The notes beneath the pieces were generated by a model. That model did not search any database. It was given only the letters and a program-made list of their open reading frames with translations, and was not told the DNA's origin. A DNA stretch of 64,000 nucleotides, from contig OX638380.1 of the NCBI GenBank assembly GCA_951813855.1, forward strand, positions 4,308,518 to 4,372,517. Direction: 5' to 3'. Each line of letters begins with the position of its first letter. The first letter of the stretch is position 1. The position numbers and the translations under genes were made by a program. Of this stretch, positions 5,165 through 41,339 are shown one piece after another. This DNA is from an uncultured Verrucomicrobiae bacterium. Its GTDB lineage: Bacteria > Verrucomicrobiota > Verrucomicrobiia > Limisphaerales > AAA164-E04.

Positions 5165-5886
5165 CTAAACCGGTACGAGTATCGGTCGAACGATCAATTC
5201 GCAGACCGAATTAGCAGGGAGGAAGTACCGGTAATCAGGCAGGTCGGTTCCGCTTTTTTTTCGGACGTTTAAACGGGGTGGTTTTCGTGACGGCTCGCAA
5301 CCCTTGGTACCGATTCGTCTGATTATCGTCAGTAGCTTCGGCCAAATTAGGGTATCCCGACTGGAGAATGATCGCCAAGGCGAGTTCGCCTGAGACAATC
5401 ATCTTCGCCCAAGATCCTGTCGCGACGGCGGTGATTGTTGTTTTCTACCGTCCCATGTCCCCGATCGAGTGCCAACAATCGTTGAGCGTCGGCAGCCTCT
5501 CGAGGCAACGAAGTGACGCCGCAAGCATGTTCCACGGTGTCGGGCTTACCATTCAAATGACGGCGGTGTCGGATGATCCGAAAGACTTGGAGGACATGCG
5601 GCAAGGTGATGGCTCCTGGAAGGGGTTCGTAGGTTTGAATGCTTCGTTGATCGATGCGGCCGGGTCCTTTCTCCGGTTTTTCGGTGAACCGGTCCTGGGT
5701 TACTCGATCCCAATCCAGGCCGGTCAATAATTGAGAGAGTTCGGGATGATTCTCTTTAACCGTGAAGAGTAAATGGGCTCCGTTAACCAACATGATGGCA
5801 TCGGCCATGACTCGGTTAGTATGGAGCGCATTGATCGAAATGATGGCTCCCCGGATATCGACATCTTTCGATACCCGGAGGCCCCA
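5165..5886 (-). pseudogene. ISAs1-family transposase remnant
   Basis: The frame at 5347-5886 keeps the middle and C-terminal part of an ISAs1-type transposase: GAIISINALHTN (family: GAVVTADALHTQ), a LLFTVKENHPEL segment, and ADAQRLLALDRGHGTVEN followed by the NHRRRDRILGEDD region. It then slips frame, and a weaker continuation is seen in the frame covering 5165-5398. The N-terminal half is missing: homology stops at the recurring junction sequence at 5884-5899. The element is dead. No inverted repeats could be assigned. Confidence 0.65.
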
Positions 5887-5899
5887 AATGGGACACAAG
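5884..5899. repeat. Recurrent 16-bp junction sequence, copy 1
   Basis: CCAAATGGGACACAAG lies exactly between the truncated ISAs1-like and IS1634-like remnants. The same 16-mer (either strand) forms both arms of the hairpins at 36275-36333 and 40971-41029. The six bases before it (GAGGCC) are also shared with the copy ending at 41029. Confidence 0.8.
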
Positions 5900-7581
5900 C
5901 GGAATCCTATCGAGAAAACGGTCGAGTTCGTAAGAGAACCCTCGCTAATTTATCCAAACTGCCGGCGTACCATTGAGGGCTTTGGAGGCGGCATTCCAAG
6001 GAGGGACGGTTTTCTCCTTTGATCGACTTCGAGAAACTCTGGAAATCACCCGCACGTGGCAGCATGGGCCCGTGGCGGCAGCACTGGGTTCTTTGCGCCG
6101 CTGCGAACTCGAAACTCTGATCGCCTCCAAACGAAGCCGAAACCGAGATCTGGTCACGGCCATGATTGTCGCTCGCCTACTGGATCCTCAATCAAAGTAC
6201 GCTACGGCTTGCCGCCTGGATCCGCAAACCACGGCCATCAGCTTGGGTGCGGAATTGAGCCTCGGCAACGTCACCGAGAACGAGCGGTGCGAAGCCATGG
6301 ATTGGCTGTTGGCACGGCAAACGGCTCTAGAAAAGCGGTTGTCACAACGTCATTTGACGGACGGAGACTTGGTGCTTTACGACGTCAGTTCCACTTGGTT
6401 CGAGGGACGAACCTGTCCCTTGGCATGGTATGGTCACTCGCGAGACGGCAAGCGCCATCGGTTGCCATTGGTTTTCGGACTGCTTTGCGATCAAGCAGGT
6501 CGACCGATTGCGGTCGAAGCGTTTCCGGGAAATACCGGCGATCCGGCTACCGTGGCTTCGCAGATCACCAAGCTGCGTCAGCGGCTTCGGCTTATCACGA
6601 GTCGCCTTGGTTGGGGATCGCGGCATGCTCACTGAAGCCCGCATTCAAAAAGACCTTAAACCCGCCGATATCGATTGGATCAGTGCCCTGAGAAAACCAG
6701 CCATCCGCAAACTGACCGATCAGGGCTTGGTGTCCCCGGAATGGTTCGATGACCGCCATTTGGCGGCCATCGAGTGCGAAGAGTGGTATCCTGGCAAACG
6801 GTTGATTGTCTGCCGCAATCCCTTCTTGGCCGAAGAGTGTCAGCGGAAGCGCGAAGACCTACTGCAAGCGACGGAACAAGGGCTTCGGGTGGTGACCGAG
6901 GCTATCCAACGACCGAAACGGGCCTATCGAGGCAAGGAAAGAATTCAGCGACGAGTCGATAAAGTGCTCGATAAACACCGGATGAGAAACCACTTTCACG
7001 TCACGATCGCTGATGATTCCCTGACTTGGCAGCGCCGGGACGAGAACATCCGGAAGGAAGCCGCATTGGACGGGAGCTACCTGATTCGCACCAGCCTCCC
7101 CGCAACCCGAATCAGTGACGAAAAAACCGTCCAAGCCTACAAGAATTTGAGTTCCGTAGCACAGGCTTTTCGATGTTTCAAAGCCAGCGAGCTACGAATT
7201 CGCCCGATTCATCACCGGACATCCGATAGGGTAAAAGCTCATTGGTTGATCGGCATGCTCGCTTATTATGTCGAACGTCATCTGCGGGAATTACTGGCTC
7301 CCTTAATCTTCGCCGACGAAGAAAAACCTCAGCGTAAGTCGCCGGTCGATCCGGCTCGTTCCTCGTCCGCCGCCCGGAAAAAAGCGGCGAGCAAGCAAAC
7401 GACTGAAGGCTTGCCGGTTCCAGATTTTCGAGGCGTGCTTCAGTCCCTCTCCAGTCAAGCCAAACAACAAGTGCGAGCCAAGATTACCGGCTCCAACTCG
7501 TTCCGCATGCTCACGACTCCCACAGCGTTGCAAAACAAAGCCCTGGAGCTTTTGGGAGTGTCCTTGAAAATCAAGGCCTAA
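5900..7581 (+). pseudogene. IS1634-family transposase, frameshifted and 5'-truncated
   Basis: DDE transposase of the IS1634 type. The N-terminal strand motif ESYRENGRVRKRTLANLSK is at 5902-5961. The main part (5973-6600) holds VLYDVSSTWFEG, with the first catalytic aspartate. The third part (6600-7581) holds ALVGDRGMLT and the C-terminal WLIGMLAYYVERHLRE region. Two frame changes separate these parts, near 5962-5973 and near 6575-6600. The second shift fits one extra G in CAGCGGCTTC. There is no slippery heptamer, so decay is likelier than programmed frameshifting. The first codons are lost at the 16-bp junction sequence just upstream. No terminal repeats were found. Confidence 0.75.
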
Positions 7582-7779
7582 TTCGGAATAGCGTAGACAG
7601 CAGCTGGAAGCGGTAATTCTTCCCTAAAAACTTCAATTAGGCCGGATACTGCGGATTTGAGCGAATTACCAGTCCTCGCCCCTGCTGGAAAATCCGTCGA
7701 GGACTCAATCTTTCAACACCTCCTAACCAATTACCATCATCGCCAATTAAAAAAACAAATTCACTGATTCGAATATTAA

Positions 7780-8664
7780 CTATTGCATGATTAATTGATC
7801 GCCATGTTTTAATTCATCAAGGTACCATATACCTGGGCCGAATGATTCTCTCGAATATAGTCGTTCGTATTCGTATAAAGACTCTTTTGAAATACTGAAT
7901 AAAAGTTGTTCAGTAATCGCCAAAGAGACATCGTAATCCATTAATTGTTCATTAGGCAAAAGAATATGAGGATTTCGCAAAGTGGTTGAAATAAGTTTGT
8001 ATCTTGAATGAATGTATTGTTCCCAAGTCGTCAACTGTGCAAAATAGGTATGTTTAGTATCTGGAACAAATTCATCGAGTTCCATACCACTTTTGTCAAA
8101 ACGATCTAATACTCTATAGTAATTGATTAAAGAGATGTATAACTCGGCCACTCGTCGGGTATGGTAACCGTAACCGTATTCGCTTAAAACATCCACAAGG
8201 TTATTAAAGGGAGGCGATTGCTGAAGTCTGCTATTAATTACACTCATTGTCCACATATAATTGTCAAGAGCAACATAATAAGGGTCAGAAAGGCTGTCGC
8301 GTCGATGTGTAATCGTTTCGTCAAAGACTATCGATGGATGGTATACGACACCACGCTCAGTAATAGGTTTTAAAGAAAACGTCTCATTTTCAGCTAATGA
8401 GTAAACATTGGTTTTAGAATTGTTTGCGGCATGGTCGAATCCGTTACTTGAATTATTCCTTTGAGCTGAATTAAAAACAATACTAGGCCGAAAAGGTTCG
8501 TTTGTATCGTAGTTAATATGATTGTTTGTATCAGCTAGTGATTCTTTATCGCTAGAATGTTTTAATCGCTGAGATAATGTGGATGAAGTATAACTATTTA
8601 AGGTTCGTAAACAAATAAAAACCAATAGTAAAACAGCCAACACACTGTATCCGATTTTTTTCAT
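7780..8664 (-). CDS. AT-rich orphan protein with N-terminal membrane anchor
   Basis: I do not recognise this 294-residue protein. It opens with MKKIGYSVLAVLLLVFICL, a signal peptide or uncleaved anchor, then a Ser/Asn/Thr-rich segment (to about residue 100) and a mainly helical C-terminal part rich in Tyr and Leu. That suggests a periplasmic or membrane-tethered protein (inference). Codon use is strikingly AT-rich (Asn AAT, Ile ATT/ATA, Ser AGT) against GC-rich neighbours, a sign of transfer. It stands alone between the IS1634 remnant and the first 204-bp repeat array, whose edge is 110 bp upstream. The reading frame is intact. Confidence 0.7.
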   Translation of the reverse strand: MKKIGYSVLAVLLLVFICLRTLNSYTSSTLSQRLKHSSDKESLADTNNHINYDTNEPFRPSIVFNSAQRNNSSNGFDHAANNSKTNVYSLAENETFSLKPITERGVVYHPSIVFDETITHRRDSLSDPYYVALDNYMWTMSVINSRLQQSPPFNNLVDVLSEYGYGYHTRRVAELYISLINYYRVLDRFDKSGMELDEFVPDTKHTYFAQLTTWEQYIHSRYKLISTTLRNPHILLPNEQLMDYDVSLAITEQLLFSISKESLYEYERLYSRESFGPGIWYLDELKHGDQLIMQ

Positions 8665-8774: not shown

Positions 8775-9426
8775 ATTCCTTCCTGGTCGCCGTCGAATTC
8801 ATCAGGCCACCCAGAGTAGCGGAAGCCGTTTGATGCCGCAAGCCCTTTCTTCGCCGTCTCGGCGGCGAAATTTTGGAGCGCAAACCACCAGATTCCGGCC
8901 ACGGCGAGCGAGCGTCCGCCCGGCGACCATCCCCAACGCAGGAGAACTCGCCGCGGACATCGTCGATGACGGATCGAGATTCCTTCCTGGTCGCCGTCGA
9001 ATTCATCAGGCCACCCAGAGTAGCGGAAGCCGTTTGATGCCGCAAGCCCTTTCTTCGCCGTCTCGGCGGCGAAATCCTGGAGCGCAAACCACCACCTTCC
9101 GGCCACGGCGAGCGAGCGTCCGCCCGGCGACCATCCCCAACGCAGGAGAACTCGCCGCGGACATCGTCGATGACGGATCGAGATTCCTTCCTGGTCGCCG
9201 TCGAATTCATCAGGCCACCCAGAGTAGCGGAAGCCGTTTGATGCCGCAAGCCCTTTCTTCGCCGTCTCGGCGGCGAAATCCTGGAGCGCAAACCACCACC
9301 TTCCGGCCACGGCGAGCGAGCGTCCGCCCGGCGACCATCCCCAACGCAGGAGAACTCGCCGCGGACATCGTCGATGACGGATCGAGATTCCTTCCTGGTC
9401 GCCGTCGAATTCATCAGGCCACCCAG
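8775..9426. repeat. 204-bp tandem repeat array 1 (three units plus 40 bp)
   Basis: Units start at 8775, 8979, 9183 and 9387 (each ATTCCTTCCTGG), exactly 204 bp apart; the last is cut after 40 bp. Units two and three look identical by eye; unit one differs in two short patches. Because 204 is a multiple of three, three frames stay open through the array: plus 8740-9432, minus 8689-9447 and minus 8759-9457. No known domain is recognised in any of them, so none is called as a gene. A second array of the same unit is at 38129-38710. Confidence 0.93.
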
Positions 9427-9453
9427 AATTGATGTGAAGCCTGTCACCCCCGA

Positions 9454-10704
9454 TCACAGAAAGCTAATCCGTAGCTGGCGTTCTTGAAGCCAAGGCACAG
9501 CGATGTCGGTTTCATCGTAGGCGGCATTGAGAAGGAACGGATTGTTTGCCCGTCGACCGATCCGGACTTCGATGCCGTCGTTGCCGATCATGATGTCCGC
9601 CGGTGCTTTGATAAAGTTCCGGAATAGCGTGCGGGATTTCGCGGTCTTCTTGTCATTGCCGATCCGAACGGCCAGCAGCCGATACAGGCAGCTAGCCATG
9701 AGAGTGAGTTGCAGGTCGAGATAAATCTTCATCGGCATGGCCGCGGACAGTGCCTCCATGTGGAAGAAGTCGATCGCGTCAGCGATGGCGTTCTCGATCA
9801 CCATTTACCGGGCATAGCGGTCGCCGAGTTGGCTGGCAGGCGTTTTCATCTGGTTAGTGAACAGCAAGGTGGGTTGTTTCTGACCCAAATCGCACACGGC
9901 GAGCTGCCGGATGTCTTCGGGATAGCCGGAGATCTGTACGCGTTGGTCCAGCACCCGCGGCGTGCGGTAGATACGTCCGACATTGTTTAAACGCACCAGT
10001 TTCCAGTCACTCTGCGGCAAGGTGGCAATAGCATCGAGCAGCGATTTAGAACGTTTGCGCCGAGTCAGAAAATCAATACCCATGGCGTTGATTCGTCCGA
10101 GATTAGCATGAGTCGTCAGCCTAGAATCGAAGACTAACTCTCTGGGCGGTCCGCCGTGGCATTGCTCCCAAAACTCGATGAAGCGGAGAATTTCGTCGTT
10201 CTGATCCTTCTTGAGGACTTGGGCGTTGGCGTAACAGAACAGGCGAGCATCGGCATCACGGGCCAAGAATGCCAGGATGCCTTTCTGCCTGGGCTTCACT
10301 TGGAGACATCGTGTTTTTCGATGGGCGTTTCTGGATCCTTGCCATGCCAGAGGATGGCAAGGATCCAGATCGAAGGAACCATCCCCTTCAAGGTCGGTTT
10401 CCAAGCTATTCAGTGCCCGGTGTCAGCGGTCCATGAGAACGAGGCACCGTTTCGGGTCGACGCGCCCGGAATACTCGGTCAGGGTGGAGTGTTTCGGCAT
10501 GACGTTCAATCCGGCGAACAAGGCGATTCCAAGATCGAGAATGTCGGTCATGACATGCGGCGGCCTGTCCAACCCCCAGAGTTTCAATGCTAACAGAGAC
10601 CGGAATGCATGACTCGCGGGGATCATCGCGCTACCCGGCATGTCGCTGTCATTAACAATTTGATCGAGATTGAGCCGGACGAGTTCGGGGACGAACAAAA
10701 ACAA
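9454..10704 (-). pseudogene. IS4-superfamily transposase remnant with two nonsense codons
   Basis: One frame from 10704 to 9454 reads as a DDE transposase: an N-terminal segment with HAFRSLLALKLWG, then KGILAFLARDADARLFCYA, GGPPRELVFDSRLTTHANLG (second catalytic-type D), and VIENAIADAIDFFHMEAL (candidate catalytic E). It is broken by TGA at 10423-10425 (MDR*HRALNSLETD, probably from TGG) and TAA at 9805-9807 (RYAR*MVIEN, probably from CAA). The region around the first catalytic aspartate is replaced by a 15-bp hairpin at 10331-10368. Total length matches a transposase of about 415 residues. It sits directly after a DruA-like fragment on the same strand. Confidence 0.72.
10331..10368. repeat. 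Perfect 15-bp inverted repeat inside the dead transposase
   Basis: CTGGATCCTTGCCAT (10331-10345) and ATGGCAAGGATCCAG (10354-10368) form a hairpin with an 8-base loop. It lies where the first catalytic motif should be, so it looks like a local inverted duplication that destroyed the motif. Confidence 0.85.
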
Positions 10705-36213: not shown

Positions 36214-36220
36214 GGAAAAA
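36214..36220. repeat. Possible target-site duplication, left
   Basis: GGAAAAA immediately precedes the left 113-bp inverted repeat and is repeated at 41084-41090 immediately after the right one. Only 7 bp and A-rich, so a modest claim. Confidence 0.6.
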
Positions 36221-36333
36221 GGTAACTATTCAGGTATCGAAAAAAGTCAGCAATTCCCACTGAAGACAGATCAGCTTGTGTCCCATTTGGGGCCTCAAGG
36301 AATCAACTCCTACACCACCAAATGGGACACAAG
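36221..36333 (+). repeat. Terminal inverted repeat of the 4.86-kb element, left, with hairpin
   Basis: Layout: GGTAACTATTCAGG at the outer edge (36221-36234), the IS-type 18-mer at 36248-36265, and a hairpin with perfect 16-bp arms at 36275-36290 and 36318-36333 (CTTGTGTCCCATTTGG and its complement) around a 27-base loop. Confidence 0.9.
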
Positions 36334-37196
36334 CCGCCTTCGCCACGATTATTTCGACGTTGAATTCCTCCGTCCCGAAACCACGGCTACGTGTTTCGGA
36401 GTCGATTCAAAGTTGGCCGAATATCGCGGAGACGACTTATCAAATCACCGGCAGTCATTTTGGCGGCGAGGCTTGGATACCTCAAAGAATTGGTGGTTAG
36501 CAGACGCGCCCTTTTATCGAGAGTGATGGTACCGATTCCGCTCGAAGATTAAAACTGTCGTTCAGTTAGTCAGAGGTTTGAGGCGGGTATTGAGAGTTTC
36601 CTCAGGGTGAGTCGCGTATTGACAATTGGACGGCGGAAAAAGGTTCAAGGCATTATTCGGTTCTGACGATCGAGTTGGTGGGGTTGGATAGGTAGGCCGA
36701 GTTGCGGGGTAAATGGCCGACCTGCACGCGACAGCGATCTTCGTCATAGGTAAAATCACGCGCGTAATGGAGTCGATTCTCGAGTCCAAGGGTTAAGGAC
36801 GGAGCGAGCAGCTTTTCAGGTTTGGTTGCTTCAGCAATTGAGGAGGTGAGGCAATAAGCGACCCCACGTCTGGTTTCGTTCGTCTTCAGAATGGGACGGT
36901 TGCGTTCGATGCGAATGACTTGCCAGCGACCGTAGAACTCGCAAAAACCGGCTCACTCGGGACCGGAGATAACGAGGGAATGACAGCGGCGGATTTCGAG
37001 GCCTTCGACCTAGCATCCATAATGGTCAGTAGACGATGGGGAGGAAAAAATCGACCAAGAGATTGGCGAGCCGTTATCTTGGCATATCCATCGGGTGCAA
37101 TTTTCAATGGCTGTCGAGGTAGCCTTCGAAAATTGCTGCTCAGTCAACTAAGATGGGATGAATATACGTCAGTTTCGCCTGCCCTCGTATTTGTTC
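36334..37196. other. 860-bp stretch within the element, nothing recognised
   Basis: Lower GC than the flanks and no supported gene. Two frames cross the hairpin, but neither has family motifs. Confidence 0.5.
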
Positions 37197-37340
37197 CTAG
37201 TTGACGGTGGCTCTGATGGTGGTGGTGGCGGCGGTGGCGGCGGTTTGAACATGGCTGACAATTCCGCTAGCGATTTCCCCTTGAATCTCGGGTCTTTCGC
37301 TGCCTGTTTCGCTGGAGACAAGACTGGTTCTTTGGCCATT
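37197..37340 (-). CDS. Small 47-residue protein coupled to the DUF6338-like gene
   Basis: ATG at 37340, stop at 37199-37197, product MAKEPVFVSSETGSERPEIQ followed by an Ala/Thr-rich tail (AATAATTTI). It has the best ribosome binding site in the neighbourhood: AAGGAG at 37356-37351, 10 bp before the ATG and overlapping the last codons (Lys-Glu-stop) of the gene upstream. That arrangement suggests translational coupling. No family recognised. It is too short to be secure by itself; the main support is the start signal. Confidence 0.45.
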   Translation of the reverse strand, partial: NGQRTSLVSSETGSERPEIQGEIASGIVSHVQTAATAATTTIRATVN

Positions 37341-37346
37341 CGACAA

Positions 37347-37964
37347 TTACTCCTTCATTTTTTCGTTTTTAATCGACTGAAAAGGCAGAAATTCTACCAT
37401 GATGACTTCTGCTGCTGGCACAAGCACCGCAGACGCTCCTGACGGAGCTGTCTGCCCGTTACTATAGTCTAACCATTCGATTTCTGCCATTCGGAAATGA
37501 CCGGTCGTGGAGTCGCTTGGCCATTCTTCTGCAAAGCCATAGAGACGACGATTTCCTTGCAAGTGCAGCACTAAGAAAGAGTTCGATCCGTAGCGGATGA
37601 AAGTTGAGTACCATTCGGAAGGATACGAATTTTCTCGAGACATGCCTGCCCATCGAAAAAATCGATGCAGAACATCTCTATTGACGATGAGAGTAACGAA
37701 TAGACCAAGTAGAACAGCAATGACAATCGAAAAGGTAGATGCGTGGGGGTGATTTAAGGCATCCTTAAATTCTGCTTCGTTAAAAATCGAAATACTAAAT
37801 TGGGTAAGCTTCTGGCAAATCAGGGTGAAAATAAGTGCCTGAACAATGAGACTGAGGGAGCTGGGGGTTGGGCGCGACGTCAGATTATAGACAATTGCCG
37901 CGGATATGAAACCCGGAAGAAGAAAGGTTAGGATTCCTACGACTTCCCCTGAAGCCCAATTCAC
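37347..37964 (-). CDS. DUF6338-like membrane protein, AT-rich cargo gene
   Basis: A 205-residue protein with at least three membrane segments (GILTFLLPGFISAAIVY; LSLIVQALIFTLICQKL; FSIVIAVLLGLFVTLIV) and a cytoplasmic C-terminal domain with NRRLYGFAEEWPSDSTTGHF and VPAAEVIMVEFL. The xRRLYGxxEEWP stretch is what I associate with DUF6338; the match is from memory and of moderate strength. Function unknown. It is more AT-rich than the chromosomal genes, lies 165 bp downstream of a 204-bp repeat array, and is followed by a coupled small ORF. Being the only intact larger gene inside the inverted-repeat element, it is the candidate cargo. Confidence 0.65.
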   Translation of the reverse strand: MNWASGEVVGILTFLLPGFISAAIVYNLTSRPTPSSLSLIVQALIFTLICQKLTQFSISIFNEAEFKDALNHPHASTFSIVIAVLLGLFVTLIVNRDVLHRFFRWAGMSRENSYPSEWYSTFIRYGSNSFLVLHLQGNRRLYGFAEEWPSDSTTGHFRMAEIEWLDYSNGQTAPSGASAVLVPAAEVIMVEFLPFQSIKNEKMKE

Positions 37965-38128
37965 AATGAAAACCCGTCAATGATCATTGACTCGGGTGTA
38001 ATTGATTAGCGGGTTTTGTCGTTGGCTCAATCAGTGGCAAAACAATGGACGGAGGAACACGCCTAGGTAATCGTGCAGCCAATACCTCGGTGTCCGCACC
38101 ATAGACAAATGGAAACCAAGTCAAGTCG

Positions 38129-38710
38129 CCCAGAGTAGCGGAAGCCGTTTGATTCCGCAGGCCCTTTCTTTGCCGTCTCAGCGGCGAAATCCTGGAGCGC
38201 AAACCACCAGCTTCCGGCCACGGCGAGCGAGCTTCCGCCCGGCGACCATCGCCAACGAAGGAGAACTCGCCGCGGACATCGTCGATGACGGATCGAGATT
38301 CCTTCCTGGTCGCCGTCGAATTCATCAGGCCACCCAAGGTAGCGGAAGCCGTTTGATTCCGCAAGACCTTTCTTCGCCGTCTCAGCGGCGAAATCCTGGA
38401 GCGTGAACCACCAGTTCCCGGCCACGGCGAGCGAGCGTCCGCCCGGCGACCATCCTCAACGCAGGAGAACTCGCCGCGGACATCGTCGATGACGGATCGG
38501 GATTCTATCCTGGTCGCCGTCAAATTCATCAGGCCACCCAAGGTAGCGGAAGCCGTTTGATTCCGCAAGACCTTTCTTCGCCGTCTCGGCGGCGAAATCC
38601 TGGAGCGCAAACCATCATCTTCCGGCCACGGCGAGCGAGCGTCCGCCCGGCGACCATCGCCAACGAAGGAGAACTCGCCGAGGACATCGTCGATGACGGA
38701 TCGAGATTCC
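38129..38710. repeat. 204-bp tandem repeat array 2
   Basis: The same unit as at 8775-9426. Complete units at 38298-38501 and 38502-38705, a partial one at 38129-38297 that begins at unit position 36, and 5 bp of a further unit. The copies differ by scattered substitutions, several of them third-position-like. Three frames again remain open across much of it. Its right edge abuts the IS21 end. Confidence 0.92.
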
Positions 38711-39070
38711 ATTCCAGCGCGTCAATTACTTTGCGACACAGCGACAATTACAATGCGACACTTGGGGAACGAGGCGTAAGATTCATTGCATCGGTCGTGG
38801 GGGGCATTCTTCCGGACGGGGTTGAGACGGTTAAGCGGAAAGAGAGAGAGTCGATCTGCTGGAGGTCAAGGGAAGCGACGAGCATCCCGCGAAGGGGTTC
38901 GACGGTTCAAGAAGGGATCGGCGTCGTGACGCAACGAGCGGCCTTCGAGGGCGGGCGTCACCCGTCGAACCTTGCTTTGCTGGTTCGGCGACTTCGGCGG
39001 CCGGCATCCGGATTCTCTTTCTCGTAGGCTGTTGACTCCCTGAGCGGTGGCGACGGGAACGAGACCGCGG

Positions 39071-39946
39071 TCAAGTCGAGGATGGGGATTCCCGAGCCGT
39101 GGGAGTGGCTGGTGAAGAGTCGGTTGTGGCGGGAAGGTTGACGCTGTGAGCCGGCTCGGCAGTGCCGTCGGCCCGGTGATGTTCCCAAGCGGTGCGGCAC
39201 CGATAGCTTTGGGTGTTGATCTCGAAGATGGTGGCGTGGTGTACGAGTCGATCGACCGCGGCGGCGGCGGTGGCTTGGTCGGGAAAGATTCGATCCCATT
39301 GGGCAAAGGGCAGATTGGCGGTGAGGAGGATGGAGCGTTGTTCGTGGCGATCGGAGATCAGTTCGAAGAGGACGGCGCTTTCTTCCCGATCGCGGTTGAC
39401 GCAGGCGAAATCGTCAAGGATGAGGAGGTGGAATTTATGGAGACGTGCGAGCAGTCCCTCGAGATCGAGATGGCGTTGGGCGACCTGCAGTTTCTGGACG
39501 AGGCTGGAGGTTCCGGTGAAGAGCGCCTTGAGGCCCTGGCGCCCGAGGGAGAGGCCGATGGCGGAGGCGAGGTGGCTCTTGCCGACGCCGGGGGGCCCGA
39601 AGATGAGGAGGTTGGCTCCCTTGCGGATCCAGCTGTCTTCGGAGGCGAAGGCCTGACCGCGTGCTTGGGGCGGGGATGGGATGAGGCTAAAATCGAAGCC
39701 TTCGAGGTTCTTGCCGGGGAGGAGTTTGGCCTGCCGGGTATGTCGGTCGATGCGGCGGTTGTCCCTTTCGGTCAATTCGAGTTCGGCGAGGGAGAAGAGA
39801 TATTTTGACGCCGGCCAACCCTCCTTGTCGGCGCGTTGAGCCAGGATCCGCCACTCGGCCTCGATGGAGGGCAATCGCAGCTCGGAGAGCATGAGAGAAA
39901 GTCGGTCGGGATCGAAGGCTTGTGGCGGAGTGGAGCGGATGGTCAT
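39071..39946 (-). CDS. istB: IS21 helper ATPase IstB
   Basis: A 291-residue AAA+ ATPase that selects target DNA and activates the IstA transposase. Walker A is FGPPGVGKSHLASAIG (~residues 116-131), Walker B is LLILDDFACV (~175), and the C terminus has SILLTANLPFAQWDRIFPD. The usual IstB length is about 250-260, so the C-terminal tail (Ser/Pro-rich after ~residue 260) is longer than normal, which suggests a changed stop. Its ATG overlaps the istA stop as ATGA. The frame is intact, but without a working IstA it should be inert. Confidence 0.87.
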   Translation of the reverse strand: MTIRSTPPQAFDPDRLSLMLSELRLPSIEAEWRILAQRADKEGWPASKYLFSLAELELTERDNRRIDRHTRQAKLLPGKNLEGFDFSLIPSPPQARGQAFASEDSWIRKGANLLIFGPPGVGKSHLASAIGLSLGRQGLKALFTGTSSLVQKLQVAQRHLDLEGLLARLHKFHLLILDDFACVNRDREESAVLFELISDRHEQRSILLTANLPFAQWDRIFPDQATAAAAVDRLVHHATIFEINTQSYRCRTAWEHHRADGTAEPAHSVNLPATTDSSPATPTARESPSST

Positions 39947-40980
39947 GGCGAAAGGCGGTTACCGAGCAGATTGGAGTACTGACCGAGGTTACCCACGGCG
40001 ACGTCTTGCCGAGGAAGGGAAGGCTCCTGGAACGCAAAGCGTGTTCTCAGGGACTCGACATCGGGGAGGGAGCCGGTCCGGAGCGCTGCTTCGATGGCGT
40101 CGGCGATTTCCGCTTCGCAGCCGTTTTCGTGGGCCAAGGCAAGGAACTCGACGGTGAGACGGCACGCTTGTTTTTCGCTCACGGATTCCTTCACTTGATC
40201 GAAGAAGTGGCGATAGGCCTCTCGAGGAAAGAGCTCATTGCGGTAGGTCAGACGTGCCAGAGCCATGGGTTGGCGCTTCAGGGACTGGATGACGTGCCGA
40301 TAATCGATGACGTTGGGACGGTGAGTCCGATGTCCGCGAGGCAGGGTTTCGATCTTCGTCGCTCCCTGGAAGAGTTCGATCCGGTCATCGAAGATGCGAG
40401 CCTTGAGTCGGTAGCTGATGAGTCGCGAAGGCACTGAGTCGTCAACCTTTCGAATGCGGCAGCCGGCGGTGCTGGTCACCGTGACCATGACCTCTTCGCA
40501 GTCGCAAGGATTCGACGGCGGCAGCGGGTTCAGCTGGCCCCGTTCGGTCTCGATGTCCTTCGCCATCCTGACGTTTTCACGAGCGACGATATCCGCGACG
40601 AAAGTTCGGTAGGCGTCCAGGCACTCGAACTCCCGGGATCCTCGGAGTTCCAGCTCACCTCGAACCCGGTCCTTGAGATGACGGTGGGCGTTTTCGATGG
40701 CGCCGTTCTCGTGGCCCACGCCCCGGTTGTTGCGAGATGGTTTCATCCCGTAGGGTTCGCACCGGGCTTTGACGCGTCCGGTCAAGTCCTCCGCTACGTC
40801 CTGGGCCAGATTGCGGAAGGCAACGGAGAGACGGTCGGTTCAGAGCTCGTGGGGGACTCCGCCCAGTTCGGCGAAGGCACCCTGAATTCCCTCGGCCAAG
40901 GCGGTGAAGGACTCGCCGTTAATGACCACGGAGACGTATCGGTAGCACGACCATGGGAGGCGAAAGTGGGCTTGTGTCCC
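39943..40980 (-). pseudogene. istA: IS21 transposase IstA, 5'-truncated with a stop codon
   Basis: The frame reads HFRLPWSCYRYVSVVINGES, then ALAEGIQGAFAELGGVPHEL, a TGA at 40840-40842, and TDRLSVAFRN. It goes on with RGVGHENGAIENAHRHLKDR (the catalytic-type E region of the DDE integrase core) to a normal C-terminal domain. The family usually has arginine at the stop (HELRTDRLS), so CGA to TGA explains it. The first half, with the HTH and first catalytic Asp, is missing because homology ends at the 16-bp junction sequence (40971-40986). A restart after the stop would yield a 280-residue fragment. Certainly non-functional as a transposase. Confidence 0.82.
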
Positions 40981-41083
40981 ATTTGGTGGTGTAGGAGTTG
41001 ATTCCTAGAGGCCCCAAATGGGACACAAGTTGATCTGTCTTCAGTGGGAATTGCTGACTTTTTTCGATACCTGAATAGTTACC
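40971..41083 (-). repeat. Terminal inverted repeat of the 4.86-kb element, right, with hairpin
   Basis: Near-perfect inverse of 36221-36333 (two differences). Hairpin arms at 40971-40986 and 41014-41029, IS-type 18-mer at 41039-41056, outer edge ending CCTGAATAGTTACC at 41083. Confidence 0.9.
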
Positions 41084-41090
41084 GGAAAAA
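41084..41090. repeat. Possible target-site duplication, right
   Basis: GGAAAAA, identical to 36214-36220 and in the mirror position with respect to the element. Confidence 0.6.
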
Positions 41091-41339
41091 GACGCATTCG
41101 CAATCGAATGTCCCGGATTAATCGAGCTCCGCCGCGCTTGCGTCCCGTCGGCGTAGCAGTGAGGCCGCCGGGGATCGAAAGATTTCGAACGGCCGACCGG
41201 TTCCAAGGTCTCTTCCCAGCGACGATCACAGTTTTTGTTCGGGGTGAACGCGCTCTGGATATGTTTGAGTTCCTTCTTGGACAGTCCCGCCGGGGCCGGT
41301 TGTCATTAACACGCTGCGATCAGGTGACGTCCCGTTAAC

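What the first reader, a model, noticed from the sequence alone, without database searches (positions are those of the whole stretch)
8775..9426. 204-bp unit repeated in tandem at two loci, open in three frames
Exactly the same period (204 bp) occurs at 8775-9426 and 38129-38710, 29 kb apart. Unit length is a multiple of three, and three frames are open throughout, two of them on the minus strand. Copies within array 1 are nearly identical (recent amplification); array 2 copies are more divergent. No domain known to me fits.
Basis: seen in the sequence. Interest (0 to 1): 0.7.

Follow-up and report, generated by a model that had tools for sequence, protein, structure and literature searches.

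The report
Satellite repeat carried by jumping genes
The 204-base repeat is a small satellite-like DNA family found in about a dozen places in this one bacterial genome, mostly spread as cargo inside a transposable element, and the long open reading frames across it look like a by-product of its base composition rather than a gene.

Summary
In detail: two arrays of the same 204-bp unit, 29 kb apart. They are 2 of 12 loci (49 BLAST matches) in this 4.89-Mb chromosome. No convincing match was found in the other genomes searched: 57 relatives and 292 genomes of the order. Seven loci share a joint between the array block and the first 121 bp of an IS66-family insertion sequence. Four of these are whole elements with GTAAC...GTTAC ends and perfect 8-bp target duplications: three of 3.6-3.9 kb with the transposase region, one of 1.13 kb without. 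First units are orthologous between loci, so arrays moved as blocks. Array 2 and one other locus instead carry the terminal 18-20 nt of a second IS66-family element. Array 1 is an end-less fragment with recently duplicated units. No reading frame shows clear purifying selection; frame −A is open in 24 of 24 complete units, but shuffled units are often open in three or more frames. Most likely this is a non-coding satellite hitch-hiking on IS66 transposition.

The parts
8775..9427 (+). Array 1: 3.2 units of the 204-bp repeat; end-less fragment, no transposon end found next to it
38121..38715 (+). Array 2: about 2.8 units of the same repeat
38063..38120 (+). Left spacer of the array block, shared with L001-L005, L007, L008 (first array) and L009
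38017..38062 (+). Left flank of the block shared only with L002; in seven other loci an IS66 end takes its place
37997..38016 (+). 20 nt identical to the terminus of a second IS66-family element (1.96 kb, ends GTAATTGATTAGCGGG); the only such site in the window
36222..36334 (+). Left 113-bp terminal inverted repeat (GTAACTATTCAGG...), including a palindrome of 17-bp arms
40970..41082 (-). Right 113-bp terminal inverted repeat, same sequence inverted
36214..36221 (.). Left copy of an 8-bp target duplication GGAAAAAG; right copy at 41084-41091 after one extra base
36222..41082 (.). 4.86-kb segment bounded by the inverted repeats; holds array 2, a DUF6338 gene (37347-37964 -), IS21 istB (39071-39946 -) and an istA fragment (39943-40785 -)

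Best explanation
The repeat is a non-coding, satellite-like family of 204-bp units that hitch-hikes on IS66-family (ISBst12-like) transposition. An array block became joined to the transposase-gene-proximal end of an IS66 element; it is flanked by a direct duplication of part of that end, so the outermost inverted repeats still frame the whole. The transposase then moves the array as part of a 3.6-3.9-kb element, or as a 1.1-kb transposase-less derivative, making 8-bp target duplications. Unit number (about 1 to 7) changes by slippage or unequal recombination between units; fragments such as array 1 can keep amplifying after losing the ends. Shown: dispersal, ends, target duplications, shared junctions, positional orthology of first units. 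Inferred: that the IS66 transposase did the moving, how the block was captured, how units multiply, and that there is no host function.
For: 49 matches in 12 loci of the own genome. Exact 8-bp target duplications around L001 (1130 bp), L003 (3907), L005 (3705), L009 (3648). The same IS66 exists without array at L027 and L028, also with exact 8-bp duplications. The transposase is DDE_Tnp_IS66 and NF033517 at 287 bits, cut-off 180. Seven loci share one joint between the array block and IS66 positions 1-121, while window array 2 and L002 keep another flank. First units of seven loci form one clade (support 91; six of them 97) and the window units plus L002 separate from the rest (99). No clear constraint in any frame; changes spread evenly along the unit (chi-square p 0.45); neither strand of the unit folds better than shuffles (z 0.18 and 0.09).
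Against: The family is confined to one genome, so long-term conservation cannot be tested. Frame −A is open in 24 of 24 complete units with 1 new stop against 4.3 expected. In the control, real tnpC copies also show only weak constraint (crude omega 0.73, p 0.013, stops 1 against 8.5), so weak coding constraint in an element-borne gene would be hard to see. The window segment 36222-41082 has a one-base offset in its target duplication; L007 has inverted repeats but no matching flanks; L004 and L008 lack a right end.
Confidence: 0.75

Rival explanations
1. The arrays encode a 68-residue-repeat passenger protein, read on the minus strand (frame −A, ...VRGEFSCVGEGRR..., or frame −B, ...WSPGGRSLAVAG..WFALQDFAAE...).
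For: Period 204 is 3 x 68; frame −A is open in 24 of 24 complete units and runs through the whole 1.13-kb L001 element (406 codons); 1 new stop against 4.3 expected; frame −B has the highest synonymous count (46 against 39.2, p 0.06, 0.11); in the window group substitutions lean to one phase (8/10/21).
Against: Crude omega 1.16 in frame −A and 0.79 in −B, neither significant; −B carries stops in most non-window units. L009 has a 1-base deletion and L003 a stop that break frame −A; 1-base and 2-base gaps also in L001, L007, L006. A frame with a stop in its consensus (+2) shows as strong a stop deficit (0 against 3.0). No Pfam family fits: scores come from weak stretches summed over repeats. Protein searches of 196 genomes of the order gave only weak, composition-like hits outside the own genome.
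Confidence: 0.13
2. The array is a cis-acting DNA or RNA part of the transposon (for example transposase-binding sites or a structured RNA) that helps transposition.
For: Carried by 3 of the 5 copies that match 2.2 kb or more of this IS66 at 92% or better (places compared) and by the short derivative L001.
Against: Array-free copies L027 and L028 also have perfect target duplications. No block of the unit is specially conserved, longest invariant run 7 bp; the unit folds no better than shuffles; no Rfam match in the window.
Confidence: 0.08
3. The tandem copies are an assembly artefact.
For: Two identical units in array 1; no reads could be examined.
Against: Twelve loci with diverged units, distinct flanks and, in four, exact target duplications cannot come from collapse or stutter; only unit counts could be wrong.
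Confidence: 0.03

Closest known systems
ISBst12 group of the IS66 family (ISDge4 of Deinococcus geothermalis, PMC12898284, passages read)
   Same: Ends: the paper gives GTGACTACTCAGCA and GTAACTGCTCAGCA for ISDge4, here GTAACTATTCAGG; 8-bp direct repeat; a single transposase gene.
   Different: ISDge4 is not described, in the passages read, as carrying a tandem array; here the array block adds about 1.4-1.6 kb (element lengths of L003, L005, L009 against L028) and part of one end is duplicated.
Tetris foldback transposon and its TIR-220 satellite, Drosophila virilis (PMC4079207, abstract and outline read)
   Same: Apparently non-autonomous DNA element sharing terminal parts with a related miniature element, carrying tandem repeats of about 220 bp that also make up longer arrays.
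   Different: Eukaryote; repeats lie inside the terminal inverted repeats; long arrays amplified in heterochromatin. Here bacterial, a few units, an IS66 element. Analogy only.
Bacterial minisatellites / VNTR loci (recalled)
   Same: Tandem units whose number differs between loci.
   Different: Here the array itself is dispersed by a transposon with target duplications.
Bacterial MITEs (recalled)
   Same: L001: short, no transposase, inverted repeats of a full-length IS, 8-bp target duplication.
   Different: Its interior is a tandem array, not a simple deletion of the IS.

Membership tests
IS66 family / ISBst12 group (the carrier) | IS66-type DDE transposase | tested here: met
   PF03050 and NF033517 above cut-off for L005, L028 and L060 proteins
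IS66 family / ISBst12 group (the carrier) | 8-bp target duplication | tested here: met
   Exact in 6 of 8 GTAACTATTC-ended elements tested (L001, L003, L005, L009, L027, L028; window segment offset by one base, L007 not) and in 3 of 5 copies of the second element
IS66 family / ISBst12 group (the carrier) | Terminal inverted repeats like those of ISDge4 | tested here: met
   GTAACTATTCAGG at both ends against the ISDge4 ends read in PMC12898284; compared by eye
IS66 family / ISBst12 group (the carrier) | Single transposase gene, no tnpA/tnpB | tested here: met
   In L005 the transposase frame fills 5588-7552 of an IS part ending at 7654; ORF lists show no room for two further genes; tnpA/tnpB profiles were not searched separately
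MITE-like derivative (L001) | Inverted repeats of a full-length element, no transposase, target duplication | tested here: met
Repeat-protein gene | One frame kept open across loci | tested here: inconclusive
   24 of 24 gap-free units open in frame −A, but the frame is broken in L003 (stop) and L009 (1-base deletion)
Repeat-protein gene | Purifying selection on amino acids | tested here: not met
   No frame significant; power limited, as the tnpC control shows
Repeat-protein gene | Known domain or homologues elsewhere | tested here: not met
Satellite-like tandem DNA | Tandem non-coding units, copy number variable between loci | tested here: met
   About 1 to 7 units per locus, no clear frame constraint
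Known structured RNA | Rfam match or unusually stable fold | tested here: not met

The most novel reading that the evidence does not exclude
A bacterial counterpart of transposon-born satellite DNA: a tandem array that has been joined to the ends of two different IS66-family elements of the same genome, is kept in most fuller copies of one of them, and keeps amplifying after release. It may encode a relaxed 68-residue repeat product from frame −A, or help transposition in cis.
Probability: 0.2. Interest if true: 0.55.

Novelty: new variant of a known kind. Interest (0 to 1): 0.33.

Why it matters
It is a clear case in a bacterium of a satellite-like array spread by an insertion sequence, with stages visible side by side: array with another flank, array joined to an IS66 end, short derivative, free fragment. 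It also shows how GC-rich tandem arrays give long multi-frame ORFs that annotation could mistake for repeat proteins.

Tried and rejected
Rejected: coding in three frames (composition explains it); structured RNA; a plasmid or viral source (no match in plasmids, or in a viral-contig pattern scan). Outside hits judged chance: a 30-bp match in G023, a 25-bp match in a Burkholderiales contig, weak protein hits in G172, G006, G056 and G107. Pfam scores for HipN (above its cut-off), DUF4010 and HTH_33 come from weak stretches summed over repeats. Right ends for L004 and L008 were sought through the left 8-mer and not found. Paper searches for tandem arrays within bacterial IS66 elements or MITEs listed nothing on point; the library is open-licence only. 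The organism's name was not established.

Full report
Observation. Tandem Repeats Finder finds period 204 at 8775-9427 (3.2 copies, 99%) and 38135-38715 (2.8 copies, 92%). A unit from array 1 used as query gives 49 matches, 77-100% identical, in the own genome (one contig, 4,887,276 bases). I grouped these into 12 loci: window arrays 1 and 2, L001-L007, two arrays in L008, and L009. Units per locus run from about 1 (L002, L006) to 7 (L003).

Distribution. Of 58 genomes in the relatives search (own included), one other had a match, 30 bp long. The whole L003 array block gave matches only in the own genome out of 293 genomes of the order, own included. Plasmid records gave none. A 23-base pattern gave one contig (Burkholderiales), where the match is 25 bp and does not extend, and none in viral contigs.

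The carrier. All-against-all comparison showed that arrays sit in longer repeated units. Several begin and end with GTAACTATTCAGGTACCGAAAAAAGTCAGC or close variants in inverted orientation. Exact 8-bp direct repeats flank L001 (1130 bp, CAGAGCAC), L003 (3907 bp, CATTTTAG), L005 (3705 bp, CGTAAGTC) and L009 (3648 bp, AAATCTTG). L003, L005 and L009 contain about 2.2 kb of an IS66-family element; the L005 frame is 654 codons and matches DDE_Tnp_IS66, zf-IS66 and NF033517 above cut-offs, while L003 and L009 have interrupted frames. The same IS66 without array occurs at L027 (2238 bp, TAGTTTTC) and L028 (2276 bp, CAAAATGG), with exact duplications. Ends and 8-bp repeat resemble ISDge4 of the ISBst12 group (PMC12898284, passages read).

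How the array sits in it. In seven loci (L001, L003, L004, L005, L007, L008 first array, L009) IS66 positions 1-121 are followed by the array block at the same joint, which starts CTAGGTAATCGTGCAG or CCAGGTAATCGTGCAG. To the right of the array in L009 the sequence runs back into the IS66 end at about position 53, so part of the end is present twice; in L003 and L005 a palindromic repeat lies at this place. L001 and L007 have instead an inverted copy of the end. Window array 2 and L002 do not have the IS66 joint: they share another left flank, starting with GTAATTGATTAGCGGGTTT. That is the terminus of a second IS66-family element of 1.96 kb: PF03050 and NF033517 above cut-off in L060; exact 8-bp duplications in 3 of 5 copies examined. 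Only the terminal 18-20 nt match; beyond them the flank differs from both ends of that element.

The window copies. Array 2 lies in a 4861-bp segment (36222-41082) bounded by 113-bp inverted repeats, each about 96% like the L001 repeat. GGAAAAAG flanks it, with one extra base on the right. The segment also holds a DUF6338 gene and IS21 istB/istA pieces. Array 1 has no transposon end beside it; its near-identical units point to late local duplication (inference).

History of units. In a tree of 44 of the 46 units (two short ones left out), first units of seven loci form one clade (support 91; 97 for six), and the window units and L002 separate from the rest (99). Arrays therefore moved as blocks, with later gain and loss of inner units (inference). 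Rows were short (204 columns) and 21 of 38 inner branches were drawn open, with support under 80.

Is it coding? I counted 139 distinct changes over 45 units (L006 left out) and compared synonymous counts in all six frames with placements that keep the type of base change. No frame is significant: frame −A 38 against 42.3, frame −B 46 against 39.2 (p 0.06, 0.11). With L006 included, again no frame has a significant synonymous excess. Stops in frame −A: 1 against 4.3; but frame +2, which has a stop in its consensus, shows 0 against 3.0. In the window group alone changes lean to one phase (8/10/21), which I report as a point against my reading. The control on seven tnpC rows gives only omega 0.73, p 0.013, so a weakly constrained gene could escape this test. 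Frame −A is broken by a stop in L003 and by a one-base deletion in L009.

Other readings. The unit does not fold better than shuffles on either strand; the window has no Rfam match. The palindrome in the terminal repeat does fold strongly as DNA (z -6.3). Changes are even along the unit.

Verdict. A satellite-like, most likely non-coding array spread by IS66-family elements in one genome. Similar relations between transposons and tandem repeats are known in eukaryotes (Tetris, PMC4079207, abstract and outline read); I found no report for bacterial IS66 elements in the listings of searches. This is a modest new variant of known kinds of element.

Noticed in passing
L029-L041; G000 places: A small dispersed palindromic repeat (arms CCATTTGG / CCAAATGGGACACAAGC), about 20 copies, shares part of the IS66 end and looks like a separate miniature mobile repeat.
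   Followed up: partly
L060-L064; ends listed: A second abundant IS66-family element, 1.96 kb, ends GTAATTGATTAGCGGG, 8-bp target duplications, 519-aa transposase frame in L060.
   Followed up: partly
window 5973-7581: IS1634-family transposase split over two overlapping frames.
   Followed up: no
window 9454-9804: Remnant matching the end of the IS1380 transposase profile beside array 1.
   Followed up: no
window 38719-38761: Two copies of a 22-bp unit directly right of array 2.
   Followed up: no
window 7780-8664: 294-aa ORF next to array 1 with no Pfam or NCBIfam match.
   Followed up: no
window 37347-37964: DUF6338 gene inside the 4.86-kb inverted-repeat-bounded segment, possibly cargo.
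   Followed up: no
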